Positions 17,935 through 31,278 of a stretch of 36,269 bases of DNA are shown in pieces. The notes under the pieces were generated by a model. It was given only the letters and a program-made list of their open reading frames with translations, ran no database searches and was not told the DNA's origin. Numbering within the stretch: the stretch's first letter is position 1; each line of letters starts with the position of its first letter. The DNA comes from Segetibacter sp. (GTDB lineage Bacteria; Bacteroidota; Bacteroidia; Chitinophagales; Chitinophagaceae): positions 1 through 36,269 of the forward strand of contig JAOQAJ010000429.1 in the NCBI GenBank assembly GCA_025963675.1, in the 5' to 3' direction. A program made the translations under genes and the position numbers.

Positions 17935-17957
17935 ATAAAAGGCTGAGATTTTATTTA
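17932..17957. terminator. Weak A/T-only hairpin between convergent genes
   Basis: A 9-bp TAAATAAAA / TTTTATTTA stem with an 8-nt loop overlaps both stop codons in the 16-nt gap. It has no GC pairs, so termination would be weak. Confidence 0.35.
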
Positions 17958-18250
17958 ACTCTTCTGCTTTTTGTTTTTACTGACTTATCATAGAACTCAG
18001 GCTCTTTTTTCCGCACCCATTTTATAAATGCTGCGATCTCTTGCTGCTGCTGTAAAAGTTCTATTGTGTAATACTGTCGCTTCAGTTCATTCCCGGTAAA
18101 CACTGCATGTATTTTATCATGACAAATTTTATGAAGCACAATTGTAGGCGTATTCTTTCCACCTTTACTAACAGGAATCAGATGATGTTTGTTAGCAGGT
18201 TCAGCTAACTCACGACCACACAAAAGGCAGATGTTTTCATTGTCTTCCAT
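17951..18250 (-). CDS. HNH endonuclease family protein
   Basis: A 99-residue protein starting at ATG 18250. It has an HNH/McrA-like nuclease core: CLLCGREL (zinc Cys pair), NKHHLIPVSKGGKNT (catalytic HH), and LHKICHDKIHAVF (second zinc Cys/His pair). The tail is basic (KTKSRRVK). No other domain is present, so it is a stand-alone HNH protein as found in phage, mobile-element or restriction contexts. No methylase or methylation-dependent restriction partner is visible here. It sits convergent to the last glycosyltransferase and next to the accessory ORF6N patch. Confidence 0.85.
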   Translation of the reverse strand: MEDNENICLLCGRELAEPANKHHLIPVSKGGKNTPTIVLHKICHDKIHAVFTGNELKRQYYTIELLQQQQEIAAFIKWVRKKEPEFYDKSVKTKSRRVK

Positions 18251-18354: not shown

Positions 18355-18393
18355 GGTATGAATGCGGTCACATCCTGTGACCGCATTCATACC
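18355..18393. repeat. Perfect 39-bp palindrome (18-bp arms, 3-nt loop)
   Basis: GGTATGAATGCGGTCACA (18355-18372) is exactly complementary to 18376-18393 around a TCC loop. It lies 37 nt upstream of the ORF6N start. No T tract follows, so it is not a standard terminator. Confidence 0.9.
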
Positions 18394-18430: not shown

Positions 18431-18991
18431 ATGATAATTATACAAAGCATACAAAACAGGATATACGAATTGAGAGGCGAAAGGGTAATGCTTGACAGAG
18501 ACCTGGCCGCGTTATATGAAACAGAGACTAAAGCACTGAACCTGGCAGTTAAACGAAATATTAAGCGATTTCCAAATGATTTTATGTTTCAACTTACCAG
18601 AGAAGAATTTGATGGTTTGAGGTTTCAAATTGAAACCTTAGAAAAAACTGATCATCCTTTGAGGTTGCAAATTGAAACCTCAAAAGGCAGGGGCGGAACA
18701 AGATATTTACCTTACGCCTTTACCGAACAAGGTGTTGCGATGCTAAGCGGCATACTCAATTCTGACAAAGCAATTAATATGAACATTGCTATCATGCGTG
18801 CTTTTGTCGAAATTCGAAAACTTGCATTAAAACAGACTGATTTAAAAGACCAATTGCAGGAAATAAAAGACAGGATAGGCGAACACGATGTACAACTGTC
18901 ACAGATTTATGATGCAATAGAAAACATGCTGGATGAAAAGGCAGGGCAAAGAAAATGGGATGAAAGAGAAAGGATCGGGTTTAAAAAGTAA
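18431..18991 (+). CDS. ORF6N domain-containing protein
   Basis: ATG 18431 is preferred to an in-frame TTG at 18404; it begins MIIIQSIQNRIYELRGERVM, the usual start of the family. The 186-residue protein has the ORF6N DNA-binding domain at about 10-125: LDRDLAALYETETKALNLAV, RNIKRFPNDFMFQL, RGGTRYLPYAFTEQGVAMLS. A helical tail follows (about 130-175, coiled-coil-like LKDQLQEIKDRIGEHDVQLS). ORF6N/KilA-N proteins are phage- or mobile-element-associated DNA-binding proteins, also common singly in Bacteroidota genomes. The large palindrome 37 nt upstream is a candidate autoregulatory site. Two similar 'RFQIET'/'RLQIET' segments around 58 and 76 form a small internal repeat. Confidence 0.9.
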   Translation: MIIIQSIQNRIYELRGERVMLDRDLAALYETETKALNLAVKRNIKRFPNDFMFQLTREEFDGLRFQIETLEKTDHPLRLQIETSKGRGGTRYLPYAFTEQGVAMLSGILNSDKAINMNIAIMRAFVEIRKLALKQTDLKDQLQEIKDRIGEHDVQLSQIYDAIENMLDEKAGQRKWDERERIGFKK

Positions 18992-19080: not shown

Positions 19081-19893
19081 ATGAGAAGATCCATTCAACT
19101 CTTTCAAAAATTACCGCGTTTTTACTATCGTTGACCACAGGTACTTGTTGTCTTGCTCAAGCAACTTTGGAGAAAGGCACAACCGTTTCAAATACAGGAA
19201 CCCCTTACTTTTCAGATCCCGCAATTTCACCGGATGCGGCTGAAATCGCCTTTGTATCCGGCGGCGATATATGACTGTTCCTGCAAATGGTGGTGAGGCC
19301 CGCTTACTGATTTCTCACCCCGATTATGAATCACGGCCCGTTTATTCTCCTGACGGAAAATATCTTGCTTTTACTTCAACCCGTTCTGGAAACGGAGACA
19401 TTTATGCTCTAAATCTTGCAGGTGGCCAATTAACCCGACTAACCTACGATGACGCAGCCGATAATGTAAATGCCTGGTCTCGTGATGGAAAATTCATTTA
19501 CTTCGTGGATTGCCTTCTGCGCCCGCCCGTAATCAATTAGGACAGCGGGCTTTGGATGCACCAACTATTCTTGTTACCAATCAACATTCTTTGTCTGATG
19601 CTGAAGATTTTACCGAAGGTTATCGTACCCTCAAGCTGGGAAAGGTGGTAGGCGAGCCAACAGGTGGTTGGATCATTTACACCTCTGCTGCTACATTGGT
19701 CGATGGAACAACTATTCGTTTGCCATTTATAAAAGTTACTGACCACGAAGGCAAGGACATGGAATTAAACCCTCGCCCTGTTGATATTCCGGTTTCAAAG
19801 CCGTTAGGCGAGTACAATAAAGACTCGCAGTTGGATGTTGCTGTAAAGGAATTGTTACGGCAAATAGATGGGACAAAGGCTGCGACCAAATAA
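19081..19893 (+). pseudogene. Tricorn-type S41 protease, internally deleted and frameshifted
   Basis: The 5' part encodes a secretion signal and the first beta-propeller blades of a tricorn-like protease: SDPAISPDAAEIAFVSGGD, SRPVYSPDGKYLAFTSTRSG and NVNAWSRDGKFIYF. The 3' part encodes the S41 catalytic end: TILVTNQHSLSDAEDFTEGY (nucleophile Ser before DAED), GKVVGEPTGGWIIYTSA and DMELNPRPVDIPV. A whole protein is about 1,000 residues; most of the middle is missing across a junction near 19505. The two ends are in different frames. The 5' part also needs one A restored near 19110 and one G near 19273. All this indicates a dead gene, or a deletion plus sequence errors. A terminator remains behind it. 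Confidence 0.85.
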
Positions 19894-19925: not shown

Positions 19926-19970
19926 AAAAAAAAAGAGAAGGTGCATGTAATGGTGCACTTTCTCTTTTTT
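19926..19970 (+). terminator. Intrinsic terminator
   Basis: A 12-bp stem (19934-19945 with 19954-19965, one G-T pair), 8-nt loop, T5 after it and an A tract before it, downstream of the protease remnant. Confidence 0.85.
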
Positions 19971-20172: not shown

Positions 20173-21195
20173 TTAGAACTTTGGGCACAAGGTTTTATCC
20201 CTGGTTGATGAACTAGAGTTTAAGAAGCCTGTGAAAGAACCTGTTAATTCAAATCCACCACGTAGTTGTGATGCTGTCTTAAGTTTAGAAACATTTGCAT
20301 CGTAGCTTATTCCCAATACAACCCTGTGGCACGCAAGTCGCACTACTGGAATTAAGGCATCGTTGAAACGATAAAAAGCACCGTAAGAAAGAGCGATCTT
20401 GTCGTTTTCGTCATATTGCACCACATCTGTTTCGTATAACAACCCGCCCAAAAACTGTCTCATTCCGCCTTGCCTGAAGTAATCAGCAAAACCAATTAAA
20501 CGCGAGTGATCACTTGTTTCGGTAGTTAAGCCGGCGTTTAATACCCACTTTTGGTCTATCACTGTCTCCGAGTTGTTGTTATAGAAATTGATCTTCGGTT
20601 TATTGAAGTGAAATAAGGCGGCACCAACATAATAACGAAAACCTTCATTTGCGGAACTGCTAAAGGTTAGCCCTGTAGAAAGGTCGAGGTAAGAATATCC
20701 TGTTCTTGAAAATGTTTGAAGCGTTTGATTGGAGGAAGCGTATGAGCCATTAACAAACTGATCATCAAATTTCCCCTGTGTTGGATCAAACTGGCTTTGC
20801 ACCGGTCCACCCATAAAAGCAAGTGACAAATAGTTATCTACATCTCCACTTAATGATTTATGAAAGTTAGCCACAGGTAGCAGGTGTGTTCTTTTCAACT
20901 TAACATCGCCTGCAACGTCAAGTGAAGTCTGCACCCCGAGCGTCAGAAAATCGTTGAAACTGAAAATAGGAAGTTTGTATTCAACAGCTAAAGCAGAAGT
21001 TTGAAACGGAACAGTAACACTTTGCCACTGAGACCTGTGTACCGCGCTTACTCTTATGTCTCCGTTATAAATCCCTGCCAGAGATGGATTTCTAAGCAAA
21101 GGGGTTTCGTAAAATTGAGAGAATTGAAGATCCTGGCTTGAACCGATAACGGCGAACCCAATGGTAAATTGTAATAGAAGATAGAGTTTTTTCAT
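20173..21195 (-). CDS. PorP/SprF family type IX secretion-associated outer membrane protein
   Basis: A 340-residue protein starting at ATG 21195. It has a signal peptide (MKKLYLLLQFTIGFAVIGSS) followed by the family hallmark QDLQFSQFYETPLLRNPSLAG and RVSAVHRSQWQS. The rest alternates polar and aromatic residues as in an outer-membrane beta-barrel (SYLDLSTGLTFSSSA, FRYYVGAALFHFNKP, IALSYGAFYRFNDAL). PorP/SprF proteins assist secretion or surface attachment of T9SS cargo with type-B C-terminal domains, as SprF does for SprB. The start lies 3 nt after the stop of the giant repeat protein, so the two genes are translated from one mRNA and almost certainly work as a pair. Confidence 0.93.
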   Translation of the reverse strand: MKKLYLLLQFTIGFAVIGSSQDLQFSQFYETPLLRNPSLAGIYNGDIRVSAVHRSQWQSVTVPFQTSALAVEYKLPIFSFNDFLTLGVQTSLDVAGDVKLKRTHLLPVANFHKSLSGDVDNYLSLAFMGGPVQSQFDPTQGKFDDQFVNGSYASSNQTLQTFSRTGYSYLDLSTGLTFSSSANEGFRYYVGAALFHFNKPKINFYNNNSETVIDQKWVLNAGLTTETSDHSRLIGFADYFRQGGMRQFLGGLLYETDVVQYDENDKIALSYGAFYRFNDALIPVVRLACHRVVLGISYDANVSKLKTASQLRGGFELTGSFTGFLNSSSSTRDKTLCPKF

Positions 21196-21198
21196 AGA

Positions 21199-24100
21199 CT
21201 ATTTTATAATTGCGACATTACCTTTATAAACAAACGAATTGCCATTTTCACATACAACTTCGCAAGTGTATACATAGACATCTGTTGGTGCTTTTGCTCC
21301 CCGTACAGTACCATCCCAGCCATTTGATTTCTCATTAACCCGGAAGTTTGATTTTTCAAAAACTATCTCGCCCCACCGGTTAAAGATTCTGAATGATTTG
21401 ACACTGTTAATTCCCGTACCTCTTACCATTAGTATGTCGTTTACACCGTCTCCGTCCGGAGTGAAAATGTTGGGAATAAAGACTTGAGCGCTTTCGCAGA
21501 ATACCTTAATATTTATTGTGTCACTTGCCGTACAGCCATATGCATTTGTAGTAGTTACGGCGTAAGTAATATCCTTTTTGATGTTAGCTACGGGGGTTGC
21601 ACAATTATTACAGGAAAGATCAGCTGATGGATTCCAGGACCACTTACTAATCGGGCCGTTAGTAGTTGCAGGCGTAAGAGGAAAGGCGGTGCCGGCAGAG
21701 AGCACTTTATCGGGACCTAAATTTACTGTTGGATATTTACCGACCGAAATAGTAAGATATGCAGTGTCAGTAAAGCACCTGTTACTATCTGTACCAACGA
21801 CACGGTATTGTGTAGTTAGCGATGGAACTGCAACGGGATTAGAAATTTCGCTGTTGCTTAGCCCTGTCGCAGGACTCCATTTATACTTATCGGCACCTGC
21901 GGCAAAAAGCTCTGTTTTGTCACCGATACAAAGTGAATCATTCGGCGAAGCTTTAATTTTAAATGGCTGAGTAATGTTAATTGTCACGGTATCAATACTT
22001 TCACAGCCGAAACTATTTACTCCTTTTACTGTATATCGTGTAGTCGCAACAGGAGTAGCAATAGGACTTGAACAATTGATACAGCTGAGATTACTGGCAG
22101 GTCCCCATGTGAACTTATTGGCACCAGAAGCATTTAACTGAACACTCTGCCCGCGACATAAGATTTGATCATTTGTTGAACTAATTGCTGGTGCAGGGTT
22201 AATAGTAATTGCTCTTGAAGTTGTATCAAGACAGCCATTGATTGTACTTACGATCAGAGTCGCTTTGTAGGTACCCGCATTAGCATACATATTGTTTGCT
22301 GAAGTGCCGTTAGTGTTTACTCCATTGCTAAAACTCCAACGATAAGATAAAACTGTATCAGCTGAAACGACGGACGAAGTAAAAACAATTTTGCTGTTTG
22401 CACATGCCGTAGAGTCGCTGATAATAGCTGCAACAGGACGTGCATTTACAGATACCGCCACCGGTTGGGTCGCAGTGTCTGCACAGCCATATTTGCTGGT
22501 AGATATTAACTGTACGAGCCAACTGTTTGCTGCCTTATACACGTGAGTAGGATGTGGTACTGAGTCCAAAGCCCCATCGCCAAACTTCCAGACGCAAGAT
22601 GCTACGCCTGTGTACGCAGCAGACGTATCTCTGAAAGAGACTGTTGTATTTTCACAAGCTGCTGTCATCGACTGCCTAAACCCTGCTTTAATAAGGTCTA
22701 CTCTGATAGTATCAGGCCCTGCTAATAATTGCTGGCATGATGCTCCTCCAAACAATTTTAAAGAAGGTAAATAATTTCCTGGTTTAGCATAGGTATGATA
22801 CACCAGATCCGTCGTTGATTTCGAAATGGTGCCGTCACCAAAATCCCATCTTACTGAATCGACCCGTACGAGAGATGTCTTAAACCTTACCGGCGTTTTA
22901 TCACATTTCACTGCACTTTCATAAGTAAAGGAGCCTGCAGGTCCGTCTACTACTACCCTTTTCGCATCCGTATATTTACAACCTCCGGGGTCTAATGAAG
23001 TCATTTTAATATTGAAGGTTCCGTTATTTAAAAAAGTATGCTTAACAACATCACCTGTATCTTTTCTGCCATCACCAAAATCCCAAACGGTAGACTTTGA
23101 AGGAAGATTTTTGTTGCGGAACGTTACCGTAAATGGAGTGCAACGACCGACACTATCAGACATGGTAAATGATCCAGGTAGGGATTCAATAACTGTCACT
23201 GTCTTATGCACACTGTCGACACAGCCACTTCCTGCGGGATATTGTCTTATTCCTGTTAAGCTAACAGTATACACACCGGCTGTCGTATATGTGTGTTTTG
23301 GACTGGTAAGATTGGAGAAGGTGCCGTCACCAAAGCTCCAGGTTGAACCTGTGATTGTATCACTAAGATTTGTGAAATGAATCGTATCTCCAAGGCACAC
23401 AGTTGAAGGCTGCAATGAAAAATCCACCGCGGGTTTGCGATACACCACGATTGAGTCACTCGTTGAACTTTCAGAGCAACTATTAGACGCAAAGAGTTTA
23501 ATCGTATAGTTGCCTGGTAGCACATATCGATGGGTAATTGTATCGATGTTGCGGGTAGTTGTGAGGGTATTACCATCACCCAGATCCCAACGGAAAGATG
23601 TTGCACCCTTTGAATTATTAATCAGCTGAACAGTATGTGGTGAACATCCGGCCCTCTGATCGCCATTAACAGTTAGTATTAGCCTGATATTATTAGGAGA
23701 TATCACAATAGAATAATACTGTGTATCGCTTCCGCATTCGCTTCTTGCGATAAGTGATACACGGAAAGTATCCTGAACAGCAGAGGTAAACGTGTGCTGT
23801 AATGAACCTGTTTGTGTTGTATTAACGATAGTCCCATCGTCAAAATTCCAGGTAAAGTCATTTGCACCGGCAGAGTAGTTAGTGAAGGTTACAGTCATGG
23901 GTGAACAACCAACTGTACGGTCTGGTTTAAATAGTGCCTGCGCTGCAGATCTTACTTTTATATTTTCATACACCGTAATAGAATCGCACGCCGAGTATAC
24001 AGTTAGTGATACTTTATAAACAGTATCACCATACTCAGGGTTAGACCGAAAAATGATATTTCCCGGGTTTGCTGAAGTTGACGTGATACCATTGCCAAAG

Positions 24101-27100
24101 TTCCATTTGTAAGTGAAATGACTTATATCAGGAGTCCCGTTTGTAAAGGCAACTGACAGTGGACCGCAACCTTCAGAATTACTAACTGTAAATGCGGGTT
24201 GAGAAACGGTCCTCGTTGTGAAAAACTTATGTTGAGTGGTATCATCTTTACAACCAAAGCTGCTTACAGTTACCAGTTTGATATTAACAGAGTCATTACC
24301 ATGCGCCAAAGTATAACCAGGAAAGGTAATACCAGTACCAATAAGTTTATTGTTTGCATACCAGTTGTAAGTACCATTAGCAGCACTGGATCCGCTGGTT
24401 GTTATTACGGTATTGTCAATTACAAACGGAGGGCAGTTTGTATCTTTTGTATAAGTGAATTCGGCTTTTGTATCAAGGTTTACAACAACTGTAACTACGT
24501 TGCTTGAATTGCTCTGGTCCCCTACGCAATATCCTGAAGTAAGAATTCTTCTGAAGCTGGTTGTAACTTTTAATGTACCCGGGTCATAGTTTTGAGCGGC
24601 GGCATTGAATATAGTTACCCATGTCTTACCCGTATCTATACTTTGCTGCCACTCATATGCATAGCTTCCTGTTGCACCTGTTGGTAAAGAGCCATTTAGT
24701 AATGCTGCAGGCGTGTTGATACAAATTTTTTGATCGCTGTTGATCGTGTTGTTGGTAATAGGAGCCTGAACAATTATGAAAACAGGATCACTAACAGAAG
24801 TGCAAGGCAAAGAATTAATAAGTCGTCTTAAATAAATATTACGGGTGGGAATAATTGTGAGGTTAACATTGTACTCTCCATTCAGGTCGGTCCACGTAGT
24901 TCCGTCATTGCTGCTTTGCCACTGATATTCATACTTACCATTTCCCCCGGTTGCGTTTTTCCCGGATATTGTAACAGTCTGACCTGAACAAATTGTCTTA
25001 CCTACATTATCGATCGTGTTGCCTATAGCCGGATGAATGGTGATATTTACAGTATCATCAGTTGCCGGGCAAACACTGTTTGTGATTGTATAAACAAATG
25101 AATAGGTGCCCGGCTGAAGATCTGAGATAGTTGGATTTGGAACAGTGGTGGAAGAGAATATGACATTACTTCCTTTGACCTGCTTCCAGCTTACCGTTTC
25201 TCCTGTTGCAGCAACGTTCCCATTGAGATTTATTGAAGTAGCAGCACATAGGGTTTGATCAGTTCCTGCCGCAGCAGTTGTCACAATATCGATAACAGTA
25301 ATCTTAGTTATTGATGAGAAAGCACTTCCACAGTTTCCACTTTCAACAACAGCTCTGAATAAAGTAGTTGTATTTAAGTTATTATAATTAAAAGCAGAAG
25401 TTGTGTTATTTATTGTATTCCAATTTGAACCGTTGTTGGCAGAATATTCCCATTTGATAATATTCCCAACATATCCTTTCAATTCGATGTTACCTGAGTT
25501 GCTTCCCTTACAAATGGTAGCGTCAGGGCCGGTAGTACCGGGGATTGTTCCAGGAATAACGTTTACTACTATGGCGTTACTTGTATCGGATGAGTAACAA
25601 CCTAAACCTGCCGCATTTGCGTCTACTATAGCTCTTACACCAAATGTGTCCCGAACGTTTAAGAAATTAATATCTGACGAGGTAACAGCAGTGTCCATCC
25701 AGATGTTGTCGTTGATCGGTGCAGGGTTATATTGCCACTTTCTAATTACTCCCGTATAAGCTCCCATATTCACTGCAACATCGCTTCCTGCACAAACAAC
25801 AGGAGTTGCTGTTATTTTACCGGCAGCAGGTTTTTGAACTACAGTAATCGTAACGGTATCTTTTGTTGGTAAACAGCCGGCATCGTTTGTTATACTCCAT
25901 TCAAGGGCATAAGTACCAGCCGCATTGAAATTGAATATTGCATTAGGATCAGTTACATTACCAAGTGTTGCAATGGCAGTTGTTGGTTGGCTAATAATTT
26001 TCCAGCTCTTTGTTTCGTATTTTCTGTCAGGGTTACCGTTAGATGCGTTGAGTTTGATAAAACCGGATGTAACAAAATCGCAAATGACTGTGTCGCTTCC
26101 TGCAACGGCGGATGTAATGGCGGGACGAACATTGATATTGACAGTATCAGCAGATGAAGGACATGCCCCGTTGCTGATTGTCCAGCTGAATTGGTAGCTG
26201 CCTGCAATAAGATCATAAGCATTTACTGAAGGTGTTGTGATGCCAGATAGTGTAGCAGTATTTGGACCACTGATTTGCTTCCATTCACCTTTTTCAGACG
26301 CAGCAGGTTCGTTGCCTTGTAAAATGGCAGACGAATTACAAATAAGCTGATCGGCACCGGCGTTTGCTTTCGTAACCTCATTCAAAACAGTAATAACGGT
26401 CGTTGTTGAAGTTACCTCGGGACAGTCGCCATTTTTTACGATAGCTCGATAAGATCTGGTAGCTGTAAGGTTATTATATGTAACAGAAGTTGTTGTATTA
26501 TTAATTATTATCCAGCCCGCACTCTCTGAGTATTCCCATCTTATCACTTTGCCGAGATTACCTGTTAATGTAATAGTGCCGGAGTTGCTATTATTACAAA
26601 CGATGGCATCGGGTCCTGTTGAACCTGGTAGCGCTGAAGGAGTAATGTTGATAATTAGTGCATTGCTGGTGTCTGTTGAAGTACAAACATTTTTTGCGTT
26701 TACTGATTCGATGATCACTCTGACTGCGAATGTATCTTGAGCACTTGCAAATGTTATAGTTGGCGTTGTTACCAATGTGTCTCTCCAAATATTATCGTTA
26801 ATGGGCGATGGGTTGTATTGCCATTTTTTGATTGCACCTGTAAACCCGGCGGTTGTTACAACAACATCGCTTGCTCCACAATAATCTGTCGTAGCTGTTA
26901 CCGGCCCTGCAACAGGTTTTTCAACTACGTTAATTGTTACAGTGTCTTTTGTTGGCGGGCAAGCTGCATCGTTAGTAATCGTCCATATAAGTTGATAAGA
27001 GCCCGCGGCCTTAAACGAAAATTCTGAAACCGGGTTGGAAGGATCGATGATGACGCCATTACCGTTAGTGGGCTGACTTAACAGAGTCCATTGACGAGTT

Positions 27101-30100
27101 TCAAAAGCGCCCTTGGTATCAGTATTGGCATTTAATGCAATCGATCGTGCAGTAACAAAATCACACACTACCACATCATTACCGGCATTGGCTGTCGTTA
27201 TAGCCGCCCTAACAAATACGCTAATGGTATCCACCGTCGGCTCACAAGCTGTATTCGATAGTTCCCAAACAAATTTGTACATGCCTGCTGTCAATGATGA
27301 AACTATTACAACGGGTGCTTTATCATCAGAAAATATTGCACTCGCAGGACCTGACACCTGCCTCCATTTACCCTGCTCGCCGGTTGCAGGTGCATTACCT
27401 TCTAATGTAGTTGAAGAGCCACATATGATCTGGTCCGCGCCGACGAGGGCTTGTGACACTGGTTCTACAATAGTGATTGTGGTAGCTGAAGAAGTTTTGA
27501 CGCCGCAATTACCGCTCTCTACAACAGCTCTGAATAGGGTTGTTGATGTCAGGTTAGTATAAGTGATGGATGATGCAGTACTATTTATTGTAGTCCAGCT
27601 TGTCCCATTGTCAGCAGAAGATTCCCACCGAACTATTTTACCGTTGTTGCCTGTCAGCGTAATGTTTCCCCCGTTAACTGCTTTGCACACTTCATTGTCA
27701 GGGCCCGTGGTACCTGGCACAGCCCCCGGCGCCGCATTAATGACCACGATATTGCTTGTATCAGTTGAGGTACATGCTGAAGATGCACCTGGATATCCAA
27801 CAATGACTCTAACAGCAAATGTATCTGCAACACTAATGAAATTAATGGTTGATGTTGTTACAAGGGTGTCTTTCCAGATATTGTCGTTAATGGGGGCAGG
27901 ATTATATTGCCACTTTTTGATATTCCCAAAGTGATTTGCAAGTGATACCAGAACATCACTACCAACACAGATATTTGTATCGGCTGTTATGGTTCCTGCA
28001 ACAGGTTTTTCAACTACGTTTATAGTCACTGTATCTTTTGTCGGATAACAGCCGGCGTCGTTAGAAATGGCCCAAACAAGTTGATAAATACCGGCAGCCA
28101 TGAAGCTAAAAGTTGATTCGGCGTTTGTAGGATCGCTAAAAGTACCCTTGCCATTGGTAGGCTGGGTCAGCAGTGTCCATTCGTGACTTTCAAACGTTCC
28201 TTTGACCTCAGTATTGGCATGTAAAGCGACTGATCCTGAAGTAACGAAATCACAGATTACGGCATCGCTACCTGCATTGGCACCGCTTATCCCGTTGCGA
28301 TTGATAACTTTTACGGTATCAGAGGTTGAAGGACATTGACCTAACCCTGAAATAGCCCACACATAAGTATATGTGCTGTCTGCCTGAAGACCAGTAATTG
28401 AAGAGTTGTATAAGCTTGGATTTACAATCGTTGACACTGGCCCCGATACTTGTTTCCATGAACCAGAACCGACAGTTGCTTCATTCGCATTTAAAACAGC
28501 AGAAGTTTGATTGCAAAGAAGCTGGTCTTTTCCGGCATTTGCCACTGTGGCACCAGGTCTTACAACTACACTTACAGTCTTTGTTTCTCCTGTACAGGTG
28601 GTGTTTGAAACAGAAGATGTAATTGTATAAGTTATTGTGGCAACAGTATTTCCTGTATTGATTAATACCTGATTTATCTTATTAGTCGCCGAAGGAACAA
28701 CCTGGTGAGAAAAACCTGTTACACTCCCTGAAGTTACCGCAGCAGTCCACGAGTATAGTACAGGCGAATATGAACTGCTTAGTGTTATGTTTGTTGCAGC
28801 GCCGGTACAAATTGTATCGGCAGAAGAAGTTACCTGCAGATTCGGTTTAGGTACAACGGTAACGGTGAGCACAAAGGCCTGCCCGGTACAAGTATTTATT
28901 TTAGGAGTTATAGTGTATTTAATTACGGCATCTACAGTTGCAGAACTATTTGTTAGAATATCAGTAATGTTACCTGTACCATTTAAAGAATTACCTGTTA
29001 CACTACCTGAAACTACAGAAGATGTCCAGGAGTAAGTACTGCCCGCTAACGCAGATGGAGCATAATTTACATTGGCACCTGTGCAAATGGTTTTTGCAGA
29101 GGATGTAGTAATTACGTTATTTGGAAGAAGGGTAATAATTACATTGTCGGTTGCAGAGGTACATGCAGAACCTGCAGCGGGGCTGACAGTATATTTTAAG
29201 GTAACGTTTAGACTTGTTCTGTCGCTGTTACTAAAAGTATAAACAGGATTATTTATCAATGGATCTGATATAGATCCCGTACCCTTTACAATGCTCCACA
29301 CCCCCGATGCTGCAGGGCCGGTGGCAGTGCCTTTTAATTGAATAGAAGGCGTGTTGTTACATAGGGTGGTATCATTTATTGCAGTCGCTGTTACAGCAGC
29401 ATCAAAAGCAATTTGTTGACTGGCAGTTTTGGTACCACAGGAATTAGTGAAAGTAAGATTTATGGCGTAGGTGGTATAATCGTCAAACTTAATTTTAGGG
29501 AACGCAGATGTAGCTGACGTGCCACCAAGATAAGAAAAGTTACCGCCTGATATCGTCCACTTATAGCTTTCGGTACCGCTATTAGAATTATAAGTAGGAC
29601 GATGATTTGGATCTGTTGAAAAATCAATCGTTTTTGTCCCGCAATATTTTCTGGTAGCAAAGTTGAAGCTTACACCAGCAATATCGGTAATTGTGACCGG
29701 AAGATTCTTATAGCTGGTACCGCACGCGTTACCAACAGACAATCTTATATAGTATTGTCCCGGCCTTAAAAAAGTAAAGGTTGGATTGGTTGCTGAGTCA
29801 TTCGGCTGGATAGTATAATCTACCCCATAACTCGCGGCTGCTGACGATGATCTTAATAAAACTGTCCAGTTCCATCTGGTCGGGCGGCATTTATAACCAT
29901 TTCCAAAAGTGGTTAGATTATTTACTGTTACAGTTAACGGAGCACAACCACTAAGACTATCCTGCCCGTTTATTTTAAAGTCGGGCTTCAATGGTTCCTC
30001 AATACAGATTTCCTTTGTAATCTCGTCACTGCACGGGTCATTAACTGCTACTAATTTTACAGTATGCATGCCGGTAGTGGTAAAAGTATACGTTAGATTT

Positions 30101-31278
30101 TTACCGGCGTTAAAAATTAGATTACCGTCAACGTACCATTCATACACCGCTACATCTATACAGTTCACAACATTGTTGTAACCCGACAGACCGTTTTGAG
30201 ATGTATTTGGGAAAAGAATCGGAGTATTTAAACATCCGTAAACCGGGTTTACAAAGTCTGCTTTGGGTTTCTGCCATACTTTGGAATAAGTGGTGATGGA
30301 TGTGAAACTGTTAGGGCAAAACTCGTTCGTTGCTTTTACATTCACTCTAAAAGCATTGTATTGAACCGGGTTTAAGTCTACTATCGGCGCCTGGCCACAC
30401 GAAGTCCATTTGTAATCATGCAACAGCAACCCATCCCGTGCAACAAGGTCACAGTGGGTATAACTATCCACTGCACCGTCACCCCACTCGATTGAATATT
30501 TTGTCCCGGGATAGTTATTCTTAATTCCACCATTTCCAGTAATATTAATTGTATATGATTTGGTATCAGGTAGGCACACATCAGTCGCACCGGAGGTTTG
30601 CAGGCTAAGATTATTTGTTGTGGCAAGAACTAAAAAGCTTTTCGCAGAAATATCGTTAGTACTATTGTTTTTCAATTTTACTGTAACCGTATAATAATTT
30701 CCCGGAGACATTGTAAACGCCAGCTGATTAGAAGTTACAGTAGCGGGAACGCTGCTTTCCACTCCATCCTTAATGATGCCGACCAAAGTATATCCTGTAG
30801 GGACAGTTTCCTGCAAGGTTAAAAGCTGGTTAGCCATGATAAGACACCTTCCGTAAGTAGAGTCATTTATCGTATTGCTGGCCGACGTTATTGGATTGGT
30901 AACTGTCGGTAAATTTGTTGACGATATCGAAAAGCTTTGCGTGATTACAGATGCAACCGGGTTAGTGGAAACAATTTTTATTTTGTAATTGTTTCCTGCA
31001 GGGGTGCCTGTTGGTATTACTCCATTGACAAATTTGGTGTAAAAGCCAGCATAAAAACCTATCTGGGAAGGATTTGCAAAACTACCCGATGCATCCGACA
31101 GGTACATTTTGAATTGGTTATCCACAGCAAAACAACCGGTCAATGAAATAGGAACAGTTATACTACCCCCCTTTCCATAAATGTCAGGAGTATAACCTGC
31201 TACACTTATCTGTTGAGAAGAAGCAAGATTTGCAAAAAATATAAGAAATAAAGCAGTAACCAGTCTTCTCCCAACCAT
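21199..31278 (-). CDS. Giant PKD/Ig-like repeat protein with T9SS type-B C-terminal domain
   Basis: This 3359-residue protein starts at ATG 31278 with a signal peptide (MVGRRLVTALFLIFFANLAS, then SQQ). The first 1,000 residues are Ig-like and PKD-like domains with many paired cysteines. Residues about 1002-2086 hold three copies of a 361-363-residue, four-domain block. Residues about 2250-3030 hold at least eight PKD domains (WNFGNG, WNFDDG, WDLGDG, WSFGDG, WDFGDG twice, WKFGDG, WSFSNG). Three related domains follow (RGQSVQLNASGANKFTWGPA, IGDKTELFAAGADKYKWSPA, and one similar). The end is a T9SS type-B (gliding-motility-associated) sorting domain: FIPNIFTPDGDGVNDILMV, FRIFNRWGEIVFE, NGWDG, VYVYTCEV. 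It is exported by Sec and T9SS and is probably a cell-surface adhesin. PorP/SprF is encoded 3 nt downstream. Confidence 0.95.
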   Translation of the reverse strand: MVGRRLVTALFLIFFANLASSQQISVAGYTPDIYGKGGSITVPISLTGCFAVDNQFKMYLSDASGSFANPSQIGFYAGFYTKFVNGVIPTGTPAGNNYKIKIVSTNPVASVITQSFSISSTNLPTVTNPITSASNTINDSTYGRCLIMANQLLTLQETVPTGYTLVGIIKDGVESSVPATVTSNQLAFTMSPGNYYTVTVKLKNNSTNDISAKSFLVLATTNNLSLQTSGATDVCLPDTKSYTINITGNGGIKNNYPGTKYSIEWGDGAVDSYTHCDLVARDGLLLHDYKWTSCGQAPIVDLNPVQYNAFRVNVKATNEFCPNSFTSITTYSKVWQKPKADFVNPVYGCLNTPILFPNTSQNGLSGYNNVVNCIDVAVYEWYVDGNLIFNAGKNLTYTFTTTGMHTVKLVAVNDPCSDEITKEICIEEPLKPDFKINGQDSLSGCAPLTVTVNNLTTFGNGYKCRPTRWNWTVLLRSSSAAASYGVDYTIQPNDSATNPTFTFLRPGQYYIRLSVGNACGTSYKNLPVTITDIAGVSFNFATRKYCGTKTIDFSTDPNHRPTYNSNSGTESYKWTISGGNFSYLGGTSATSAFPKIKFDDYTTYAINLTFTNSCGTKTASQQIAFDAAVTATAINDTTLCNNTPSIQLKGTATGPAASGVWSIVKGTGSISDPLINNPVYTFSNSDRTSLNVTLKYTVSPAAGSACTSATDNVIITLLPNNVITTSSAKTICTGANVNYAPSALAGSTYSWTSSVVSGSVTGNSLNGTGNITDILTNSSATVDAVIKYTITPKINTCTGQAFVLTVTVVPKPNLQVTSSADTICTGAATNITLSSSYSPVLYSWTAAVTSGSVTGFSHQVVPSATNKINQVLINTGNTVATITYTITSSVSNTTCTGETKTVSVVVRPGATVANAGKDQLLCNQTSAVLNANEATVGSGSWKQVSGPVSTIVNPSLYNSSITGLQADSTYTYVWAISGLGQCPSTSDTVKVINRNGISGANAGSDAVICDFVTSGSVALHANTEVKGTFESHEWTLLTQPTNGKGTFSDPTNAESTFSFMAAGIYQLVWAISNDAGCYPTKDTVTINVVEKPVAGTITADTNICVGSDVLVSLANHFGNIKKWQYNPAPINDNIWKDTLVTTSTINFISVADTFAVRVIVGYPGASSACTSTDTSNIVVINAAPGAVPGTTGPDNEVCKAVNGGNITLTGNNGKIVRWESSADNGTSWTTINSTASSITYTNLTSTTLFRAVVESGNCGVKTSSATTITIVEPVSQALVGADQIICGSSTTLEGNAPATGEQGKWRQVSGPASAIFSDDKAPVVIVSSLTAGMYKFVWELSNTACEPTVDTISVFVRAAITTANAGNDVVVCDFVTARSIALNANTDTKGAFETRQWTLLSQPTNGNGVIIDPSNPVSEFSFKAAGSYQLIWTITNDAACPPTKDTVTINVVEKPVAGPVTATTDYCGASDVVVTTAGFTGAIKKWQYNPSPINDNIWRDTLVTTPTITFASAQDTFAVRVIIESVNAKNVCTSTDTSNALIINITPSALPGSTGPDAIVCNNSNSGTITLTGNLGKVIRWEYSESAGWIIINNTTTSVTYNNLTATRSYRAIVKNGDCPEVTSTTTVITVLNEVTKANAGADQLICNSSAILQGNEPAASEKGEWKQISGPNTATLSGITTPSVNAYDLIAGSYQFSWTISNGACPSSADTVNINVRPAITSAVAGSDTVICDFVTSGFIKLNASNGNPDRKYETKSWKIISQPTTAIATLGNVTDPNAIFNFNAAGTYALEWSITNDAGCLPTKDTVTITVVQKPAAGKITATPVVCAGSDVAVNMGAYTGVIRKWQYNPAPINDNIWMDTAVTSSDINFLNVRDTFGVRAIVDANAAGLGCYSSDTSNAIVVNVIPGTIPGTTGPDATICKGSNSGNIELKGYVGNIIKWEYSANNGSNWNTINNTTSAFNYNNLNTTTLFRAVVESGNCGSAFSSITKITVIDIVTTAAAGTDQTLCAATSINLNGNVAATGETVSWKQVKGSNVIFSSTTVPNPTISDLQPGTYSFVYTITNSVCPATDDTVNITIHPAIGNTIDNVGKTICSGQTVTISGKNATGGNGKYEYQWQSSNDGTTWTDLNGEYNVNLTIIPTRNIYLRRLINSLPCTSVSDPVFIIVQAPITNNTINSDQKICINTPAALLNGSLPTGATGSYAYEWQQSIDTGKTWVTIFNAAAQNYDPGTLKVTTSFRRILTSGYCVGDQSNSSNVVTVVVNLDTKAEFTYTKDTNCPPFVIDNTVITTSGSSAANGTYNWYANNKLIGTGITFPGYTLAHGNDSVNIKLVTVSSFGCKDDTTQHKFFTTRTVSQPAFTVSNSEGCGPLSVAFTNGTPDISHFTYKWNFGNGITSTSANPGNIIFRSNPEYGDTVYKVSLTVYSACDSITVYENIKVRSAAQALFKPDRTVGCSPMTVTFTNYSAGANDFTWNFDDGTIVNTTQTGSLQHTFTSAVQDTFRVSLIARSECGSDTQYYSIVISPNNIRLILTVNGDQRAGCSPHTVQLINNSKGATSFRWDLGDGNTLTTTRNIDTITHRYVLPGNYTIKLFASNSCSESSTSDSIVVYRKPAVDFSLQPSTVCLGDTIHFTNLSDTITGSTWSFGDGTFSNLTSPKHTYTTAGVYTVSLTGIRQYPAGSGCVDSVHKTVTVIESLPGSFTMSDSVGRCTPFTVTFRNKNLPSKSTVWDFGDGRKDTGDVVKHTFLNNGTFNIKMTSLDPGGCKYTDAKRVVVDGPAGSFTYESAVKCDKTPVRFKTSLVRVDSVRWDFGDGTISKSTTDLVYHTYAKPGNYLPSLKLFGGASCQQLLAGPDTIRVDLIKAGFRQSMTAACENTTVSFRDTSAAYTGVASCVWKFGDGALDSVPHPTHVYKAANSWLVQLISTSKYGCADTATQPVAVSVNARPVAAIISDSTACANSKIVFTSSVVSADTVLSYRWSFSNGVNTNGTSANNMYANAGTYKATLIVSTINGCLDTTSRAITINPAPAISSTNDQILCRGQSVQLNASGANKFTWGPASNLSCINCSSPIATPVATTRYTVKGVNSFGCESIDTVTINITQPFKIKASPNDSLCIGDKTELFAAGADKYKWSPATGLSNSEISNPVAVPSLTTQYRVVGTDSNRCFTDTAYLTISVGKYPTVNLGPDKVLSAGTAFPLTPATTNGPISKWSWNPSADLSCNNCATPVANIKKDITYAVTTTNAYGCTASDTINIKVFCESAQVFIPNIFTPDGDGVNDILMVRGTGINSVKSFRIFNRWGEIVFEKSNFRVNEKSNGWDGTVRGAKAPTDVYVYTCEVVCENGNSFVYKGNVAIIK
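25020..28275 (-). repeat. Three tandem ~1.09-kb coding repeats (four Ig-like domains each)
   Basis: Within the giant gene, a block of four domain types recurs three times, beginning at about 28275, 27186 and 26103 (spacing 1089 and 1083 nt). Markers per block are: A, CDFVT...TNDAGC.PTKDTVTI; B, KWQYNPAPINDNIW; C, a GTTGPD...RWEYS segment; D, AGADQ.IC...GEWKQISGP. One extra D-type domain precedes the first block. Amino-acid similarity is high but not exact, so the duplications are not very recent. Confidence 0.85.

What the first reader, a model, noticed from the sequence alone, without database searches (positions are those of the whole stretch)
18355..18393. Perfect 39-bp palindrome 37 nt upstream of an ORF6N gene
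Two exact 18-nt arms around a 3-nt loop, GC-balanced and without a T tract, make a very stable cruciform or hairpin. It lies just before a DNA-binding phage-type gene and next to an HNH nuclease. It could be an operator for ORF6N autoregulation, a recombination or transposition end, or a REP-like element.
Basis: seen in the sequence. Interest (0 to 1): 0.6.

Follow-up and report, generated by a model that had tools for sequence, protein, structure and literature searches.

The report
Genes carrying their own protein's target
The perfect palindrome belongs to a family of DNA sites that a widespread group of phage-type genes carry inside their own coding sequence, where the matching gene product is predicted to bind them by a simple residue-to-base code.

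Summary
The 39-bp palindrome (18355-18393) is real. It is one member of a palindrome family tied to ORF6N genes (candidate phage-defence family PDC-S05). The striking members lie inside the gene: 136 of 155 usable ORF6N genes from many phyla hold a strong palindrome in one part of the coding sequence, against 1.25% in synonymous recodings. It is coded in two reading frames and shows no G-U preference, so DNA is what is conserved. Two residues of the predicted recognition helix go with palindrome bases (38: Q/E/K/R/L with CA/CG/TC/GC-type/TK; 34: K/R with G/A). In 43 sister pairs both changed 20 times, the residue alone never. The rule held in 38 of 38 held-out genes. Bro-N/DinD genes, including E. 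coli K-12 dinD, carry analogous palindromes. Most likely each protein binds the site in its own gene; the use (aba-like self tag or intragenic autoregulation) is inferred. The flagged upstream copy is non-cognate: the window protein (K34/L38) fits its two internal palindromes, the flagged site fits K34/Q38 relatives. Upstream copies in general fit their own gene at residue 38 about as often as chance. No binding experiment exists.

The parts
18355..18393 (.). flagged palindrome, 18-bp arms, loop TCC; half-site ATGCGGTCACA; class G at offset 7, CA at offsets 5-4 (fits K34/Q38 proteins)
18431..18991 (+). ORF6N gene (186 aa), PF10543 and PADLOC PDC-S05 match; residues K34, L38
18527..18556 (+). 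codons of predicted recognition helix, residues 33-42 (K34 at 18530-18532, L38 at 18542-18544)
   Evidence: AlphaFold model; covariation
18620..18638 (.). in-frame palindrome 1, AGGTTTCAAATTGAAACCT (codes RFQIETL); TT class, cognate to L38
18658..18684 (.). in-frame palindrome 2, TTTGAGGTTGCAAATTGAAACCTCAAA, one mismatch; TG class, cognate to L38; centre 42 nt from palindrome 1
17951..18250 (-). divergent HNH gene (99 aa); no evidence that it belongs to the system

Best explanation
ORF6N genes, and by analogy Bro-N/DinD genes, carry inside their reading frame a palindromic DNA site that the encoded helix-turn-helix protein itself binds, probably as a dimer. Residue 38 of the predicted recognition helix reads the bases next to the CA-N3-TG core and residue 34 the base three positions further out; protein and site switch specificity together. 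Shown by computation: the conserved DNA palindrome, its independence of reading frame, and the residue-base rule, including a held-out test. Inferred: physical binding, dimerisation and the use made of it. My split for the use: a cis self-recognition or self-immunity tag like aba of BstA 0.45; autoregulation from within the gene 0.40; something else 0.15. The flagged upstream palindrome is another site of this family, of the K34/Q38 class, hence probably bound by a relative of the neighbouring gene (cross-regulation, counter-immunity tag or relic) rather than by its own product. The confidence below is for the binding claim.
For: In-gene palindrome: score >=8 in 136 of 155 genes against 1.25% in synonymous shuffles. 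Covariation of the arms of 41 palindromes: 113 double-change cells against 33.9 shuffled. Second reading frame: 10 genes with score >=7. Mismatches inside the helix: AC/CA 21, GT/TG 13, others 31 of 1338 cells, so no G-U preference. Within-clade covariation in 129 genes: residue 38 z 32, residue 35 z 20 with offsets 5-4; residue 34 z 22.5 with offsets 8-7. Rule table, 138 genes: Q-CA 76/76, E-CG 24/24, K-TC 13/13, L-TG/TT 8/8, R mixed (GC 9, TC 3, GT 1, CC 1), T-CA 1, two gaps; K34-G 72/72, R34-A 37/45. Sister pairs: 20 both change, 0 residue only, 1 site only, 22 neither, of 43. Held-out: 38/38 for residue 38 against 12.8 permuted, 36/37 for residue 34; 33 of the 38 are under 90% identical to the training genes and to each other. 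Bro-N: 16 of 26 usable genes exceed all 40 shuffles; in 15 tabulated DinD-like genes helix motif goes with half-site; E. coli K-12 dinD.
Against: No binding data. Upstream copies follow the residue-38 rule in only 15 of 33 genes against 12.4 expected, p 0.18, so upstream sites are not generally sites of the adjacent gene's product. In genes with several internal palindromes 23 of 29 copies fit their own protein. No helical phasing between upstream and internal copies. Of the 89 genomes with ORF6N, 28 have no palindrome-model match at E <= 1e-3 (strict filters). Four of 155 genes scored below 7: two have a palindrome outside the stretch I scanned, L028 has sites of its own class downstream instead, L191 only a weak one. 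In the upstream, multi-copy and held-out tests the rule counts as met if either arm fits, and the R38 class is broad. E. coli BLR(DE3) dinD has no palindrome at the threshold used. One residue outside helix and palindrome, 112, also scored z 4.7. Fold matches to DNA-binding winged helices are weak.
Confidence: 0.88

Rival explanations
1. The in-gene and upstream palindromes are operators for ordinary autoregulation: the dimer blocks the promoter or stops RNA polymerase within the gene, which keeps feedback wherever the mobile gene lands.
For: 27 of 40 upstream copies lie 40-120 nt before the domain start; nearest upstream and internal half-sites of one gene are more alike than across genes, 6.47 against 5.54 of 9, 0 of 20000 permutations; L010, L012, L049 and L105 have upstream copies of their own class; Bernardetia dinD has a matching upstream copy and Thiothrix dinD an upstream copy only.
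Against: Only 35 of 161 genes have an upstream copy and the residue-38 rule holds there about as often as chance; no helical phasing.
Confidence: 0.4
2. The palindrome is a self-immunity tag, as aba is for BstA: the defence protein spares DNA that carries its cognate site, and extra non-cognate sites protect against other variants.
For: PDC-S05 profile match E 1.3e-55; BstA has a KilA-N-like domain and a DNA-based, cognate element overlapping its own gene (PMC8585504, passages); site class changes 48 times on a tree where shuffled labels give 55.4; extra non-cognate internal sites in L140, L165, L174 and a non-cognate upstream site in the window.
Against: Defence by ORF6N is only a database candidate; aba is not described as palindromic and BstA is a different protein; no immunity assay.
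Confidence: 0.45
3. The palindromes act as mRNA hairpins (terminator, translation control or RNase site).
For: Strongly covarying inverted repeats in transcribed sequence.
Against: No G-U preference; in 68% of genes complementarity reaches the innermost pair (offset 1); the flagged copy has no T tract; the residue-base rule.
Confidence: 0.04
4. A selfish REP-like or RPE-like palindrome inserts preferentially in ORF6N genes.
For: Tandem internal copies, commonest spacing 42 nt (6 of 16 spacings); unexplained orphan matches (11 of 23 fetched).
Against: Much the same place in the gene across phyla; no Y1-transposase link; the residue-base rule.
Confidence: 0.04

Closest known systems
BstA / aba prophage self-immunity (Owen et al. 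2021, PMC8585504; abstract and passages seen)
   Same: KilA-N-like protein with a short, cognate DNA element that overlaps its own gene and acts as DNA
   Different: aba is 63 bp across the start codon with CCCGCC direct repeats; here a palindrome about 190-250 nt into the window gene and similar places elsewhere, in many phyla, with a readable residue-base rule; immunity not tested
PADLOC PDC-S05 (candidate single-gene phage defence)
   Same: The window ORF6N matches its profiles at E 1.3e-55
   Different: The two papers found by name mention it once each, in a methods line and in a list of counts (PMC12988326, PMC13356809; passages)
Intragenic operators of autoregulators (for example the lac operator inside lacZ; recalled)
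   Same: A protein-binding palindrome inside a coding sequence
   Different: Here present in nearly every gene sampled of one protein family, coded in two reading frames, diversifying together with the recognition helix
Rickettsia palindromic elements (recalled; only search listing seen)
   Same: Palindromic DNA within protein-coding genes
   Different: Those are scattered in unrelated genes (recalled); here one gene family, fixed place, cognate to the protein
REP palindromes with RAYT transposases (recalled; PMC3733652 seen in search listing only)
   Same: 20-40 bp palindromes
   Different: Not dispersed, no linked transposase

Membership tests
ORF6N (PF10543) | profile match over the curated cut-off | tested here: met
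   120.1 bits against 27.8
PDC-S05 candidate defence | PADLOC profile match | tested here: met
   E 1.3e-55
PDC-S05 candidate defence | protects against phage | not testable with these tools
   needs an infection assay
Cognate binding site of the gene's own product (in-gene palindromes 18620-18638, 18658-18684) | half-site fits residues 34 and 38 | tested here: met
   L38 with TT and TG; K34 with G at offset 7 (sequence; rule). The window gene was among the genes from which the rule was drawn
Autoregulatory operator of this gene (flagged 18355-18393) | half-site fits the window protein at residue 38 | tested here: not met
   CA with L38; L38 genes have TG or TT in 8 of 8, Q38 genes CA in 76 of 76
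BstA/aba | 63-bp element across the start codon with CCCGCC direct repeats at its ends | tested here: not met
   palindromes of other sequence and place (definition)
BstA/aba | cognate DNA confers self-immunity | not testable with these tools
   needs a phage assay
REP/RAYT | many dispersed copies | tested here: not met
   one exact site in 4.93 Mb; 6 of the 7 model matches in G000 are listed and all lie at its two ORF6N loci
REP/RAYT | linked Y1 transposase carrying the palindrome | tested here: not met
   four Y1_Tnp matches, no palindrome of this family in their loci
Intrinsic terminator | T tract after the hairpin | tested here: not met
   flanks read directly

The most novel reading that the evidence does not exclude
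A whole superfamily of phage-type proteins (ORF6N, Bro-N, DinD) obeys one rule: each gene contains, in its reading frame, the DNA site that its own product recognises. The pair evolves as fast as a self/non-self marker, with additional non-cognate sites collected as protection against rival variants, so that the gene itself is the identity tag of a defence system.
Probability: 0.4. Interest if true: 0.95.

Novelty: new variant of a known kind. Interest (0 to 1): 0.88.

Why it matters
It predicts DNA targets from sequence alone for a common and little-studied family, gives a residue-to-base recognition rule that can be tested with single mutations, explains a conserved but variable peptide (RSQIVTS-like) as a by-product of DNA constraint, and offers a route to the function of candidate defence family PDC-S05 and of E. 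coli dinD. A protein family whose genes encode their own target in frame would be a surprising rule for specialists.

Tried and rejected
Mobile palindrome or REP: rejected. Terminator: no T tract. RNA hairpin: no G-U preference. DNA looping with helical phasing between upstream and internal copies: not seen (R 0.06 at 10.5, n 27). Upstream copy as operator of the adjacent gene: residue-38 rule 15 of 33 against 12.4 expected. Phage_pRha as an outgroup control: all six matches overlap ORF6N matches, so it gave no control. PDB sequence and fold searches gave nothing convincing (Ski/Dachshund domain Z 5-6, MerR/RacA about 4-5, under the level the tool calls trustworthy).

Orphan palindrome matches: 23 places without a listed ORF6N gene were fetched; by my reading 5 are terminator-like (L062, L064=L090, L073, L224, L226), 3 AT-rich repeats (L074-L076), 4 ORF6N remnants (L080, L225, L227, L229) and 11 unexplained, several of them weak matches (L066, L068, L069, L071, L072, L077, L079, L081, L082, L228, L230).

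Literature: ten searches. Those that joined a family name with palindromes are (one paper, PMC6591296; its passages on palindromes concern CRISPR only; nine papers, eight listed; passages of two seen; the rest listing only; 44 papers hold three of four terms, ten listed) was broader. One search listed 8 of 472 papers, seven of them on a medical abbreviation and one on a place name. So 'not in print' rests on little; subscription journals are mostly not held.

Rows dropped: 12 of 167 genes (listed there); in the Bro-N shuffle test 4 of 30 loci (L249 and L264 not given, L247 and L265 skipped for stops); in the DinD-like tally 15 of 22 loci given to one search were used (L262 motif not found, L271 no palindrome, L274, L275, L278, L279, L280 of other form or weak); in the held-out test 6 of 44 loci where my motif was not found.

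The first dinD table script found nothing because of a wrong pattern; repeated. One search failed on file names, on a wrong index, one search stopped with an error.

Full report
OBSERVATION. The palindrome is exact: two 18-nt arms around TCC at 18355-18393, 37 nt before the ATG (18431) of an ORF6N gene. The exact arm occurs only here in the 4.93-Mb, 88% complete assembly; two further sites have 2-3 mismatches. The assembly has four Y1-transposase matches, none with a palindrome of this family in its locus, and two ORF6N genes.

WHAT LED AWAY FROM IT. The second ORF6N gene (L010) has a palindrome upstream and one with the same core arms inside its coding sequence. Most ORF6N loci of relatives showed a near-perfect palindrome with a CA-N3-TG core inside the gene, and some had more upstream. 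Forty-one of these palindromes align without gaps; pairing covaries strongly (113 cells with a change on both sides against 33.9 shuffled; covariation score 0.550 against 0.172; slid versions 0.084-0.131). The window gene has two internal copies, 18620-18638 and 18658-18684.

TIED TO ORF6N. With a covariance model of the palindrome, 66 of 296 genomes of the phylum match at E <= 1e-3, and ORF6N is found in 89 of the same 296. Reading the two tables together, 61 genomes have both, 5 only the palindrome and 28 only ORF6N. Of the five, four were inspected: two matches look like terminators, two lie by ORF6N remnants; G179 was not inspected. Over the closer relatives and this set I fetched 23 matches without a listed ORF6N gene: by my reading 5 terminator-like, 3 AT-rich repeats, 4 ORF6N remnants, 11 unexplained, several of these weak. 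The model was built from ORF6N loci and its E-values are rough.

NOT EXPLAINED BY THE PROTEIN. I pooled ORF6N genes from relatives, from 80 loci of public genomes of many phyla (the best 80 of 587 confirmed) and from viral contigs: 173 distinct, 167 below 90% identity, 155 usable, 12 excluded (no motif or a stop inside). They were sought by protein similarity; some of the closer relatives' loci (part, and loci) were fetched because of a palindrome match. A palindrome score of 8 or more inside the gene is found in 136 of 155; synonymous codon shuffles of the same peptides give 1.25% (score >=12: 46% against 0.04%). At score >=7 it is 151 of 155. Of the other four, two have one outside the stretch my motif had set, L028 has three copies of its own class downstream of the gene, L191 has a weak one. 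Ten genes with score >=7 code the palindrome in another frame (EVITNCDNLP-like instead of LRSQIVTS-like) at the same place. Mismatches inside the helix show no excess of G-U over A-C (13 against 21, others 31, of 1338 cells), so DNA symmetry rather than an RNA hairpin is kept. In the AlphaFold model of the window protein (mean pLDDT 82, 83 sequences) the peptide lies at the end of a helix and in a stretch with pLDDT below 50, a permissive place.

WHO READS IT. Within-clade permutation tests on 129 frame-0 genes tie the bases at offsets 5-4 from the centre to residues 38 (z 32), 35 (20), 39 (8) and 34 (5.5), and offsets 8-7 to residue 34 (22.5). Residues 65 and 68 (offsets 5-4) and 64, 69, 70 and 88-92 (offsets 8-7) also rank high; these are coded by the palindrome or lie near it. 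Residue 112 (z 4.7) has no such excuse. Residues 34, 35, 38 and 39 are in the second helix (33-42) of the predicted helix-turn-helix; in the window their codons end some 70 nt before the first internal palindrome. In 138 genes Q38 goes with CA 76/76, E38 with CG 24/24, K38 with TC 13/13, L38 with TG 5 and TT 3, R38 with GC 9, TC 3, GT 1, CC 1; one T38 has CA and two rows have a gap; K34 goes with G at offset 7 in 72/72, R34 with A in 37/45. The nine genes of the other frame in that set obey the same residue-38 rule. The pairings fit textbook contacts (Gln-A, Arg/Lys-G, Glu-C; recalled). On a tree built without these columns, 43 sister pairs give 22 with no change, 20 with both changed, 0 with the residue alone and 1 with the site alone (TT/TG, both L38); the site class changes 48 times against 55.4 for shuffled labels, so specificity turns over very fast. 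As a held-out test I took 40 further loci from other genomes plus four fetched but unused (L231, L233, L281, L282). In 6 of 44 my motif was not found; in the other 38 the residue-38 rule held 38 times (permuted mean 12.8; 0 of 20000) and the residue-34 rule 36 of 37. Either arm was allowed to fit. Of the 38, 33 are under 90% identical to the training genes and to each other; two are 90% or more identical to a training gene, and one (L319) gave no alignment of 100 residues in that check.

WIDER. Bro-N loci of the same phylum also hold in-frame palindromes of other sequence: 16 of 26 usable genes (of 30 loci) exceed all 40 synonymous shuffles. DinD-like genes show CATTT-type palindromes whose inner bases go with the helix motif (EWR with TGTTG 4/4, RWE with TCGTG 3/3, EYR with CGAGG 2/2, DYR with CGTTG 2/2, and four singles; 15 of the 22 loci given, tabulated by hand; 0 of 20000 permutations, relatedness not corrected). 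E. coli K-12 dinD has TGACCATTTCGAGGAGATCCTCGATATGGTCA at +173..+204 (15-nt arms, one mismatch); the 87%-identical allele of laboratory strain BLR(DE3) has no palindrome there at the threshold used.

THE FLAGGED SITE. The window protein is K34/L38 and its internal sites are TT and TG: cognate. The flagged upstream palindrome is CA with G at offset 7; the four genes in my set with the same GCGGTCACA stretch inside are all K34/Q38. By the rule it is a site for a relative, not for its neighbour's own product. The other ORF6N of this assembly (L010) is R34/Q38 and would fit it at residue 38 only. The pattern is general: upstream palindromes exist in 35 of 161 genes (2 of 298 control windows), lie mostly just before the gene, and satisfy the residue-38 rule in 15 of 33 cases against 12.4 expected (p 0.18), the residue-34 rule in 22 of 28. 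Their overall resemblance to the internal copy of the same gene (6.47 against 5.54 of 9) therefore probably comes from the outer bases. Some genes also hold non-cognate internal copies (L140, L165, L174; 23 of 29 internal copies in multi-copy genes are cognate).

HOW IT WORKS. Most likely the protein binds, as a dimer, the palindrome in its own gene. Two uses fit. (1) A self tag: the family matches PADLOC candidate defence PDC-S05, and BstA, a defence protein with a KilA-N-like domain, has a cognate, DNA-based immunity element overlapping its gene (PMC8585504, passages). Rapid turnover and extra non-cognate sites would be expected. (2) Autoregulation from within the gene, which travels with a mobile gene. 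Nothing here decides between them; absence of helical phasing and non-cognate upstream sites speak mildly against classical promoter operators.

NOVELTY. Ten full-text searches of an open-access library found no report of it, but only a few joined the family names with palindromes (details in Tried and rejected), and subscription journals are mostly missing. Intragenic operators and aba are the nearest kinds, hence 'new variant of a known kind', although an in-frame self-site over a superfamily may deserve more.

Noticed in passing
window 19271-19893: Remnants of a PD40 beta-propeller and peptidase S41 gene in separate frames, apparently a decayed gene downstream of ORF6N.
   Followed up: no
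window 19929-19970: Hairpin with 17-nt arms AAAAAAGAGAAGGTGCA/TGCACTTTCTCTTTTTT (one mismatch), a likely terminator.
   Followed up: no
window 21199-31278: A 3359-aa ORF on the minus strand next to a PorP/SprF type IX secretion gene (20173-21195); the large ORF was not scanned.
   Followed up: no
L228 1624-1690 (G133:C7): Two family-type palindromes 39 nt apart with no ORF6N gene found nearby; neighbouring ORFs look like a type III restriction-modification system (my reading of the translation).
   Followed up: partly
L077 1996-2032 and L079 585-609: Two genomes of one genus (G009, G005) share an orphan palindrome with half-site TAAGGATTACA away from ORF6N; neither terminator-like nor explained.
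   Followed up: no
L054 and L109: ORF6N halves in inverted or duplicated order around palindromes, as if the palindromes had mediated rearrangement.
   Followed up: no
L270 5761-6585 and L271 401-1225: E. coli dinD exists as at least two alleles at one locus; K-12 and BLR(DE3) differ over most of the N-terminal domain while the end of the first 120 residues is the same, as if DNA-binding region and palindrome were exchanged as a cassette. 2732 of 4668 matching E. coli genomes fall in the 80-90% identity band.
   Followed up: partly
L135, L151, L189: A variant core, CTTGAGGACGAAATTTTCGTCCTCAAG, goes with alanine at residue 38 in all three genes, a possible further letter of the recognition rule.
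   Followed up: no
L018, L111, L120, L165, window 18620-18684: Tandem in-frame cassettes; 42 nt is the commonest spacing between neighbouring palindromes (6 of 16 spacings), about four DNA turns.
   Followed up: partly
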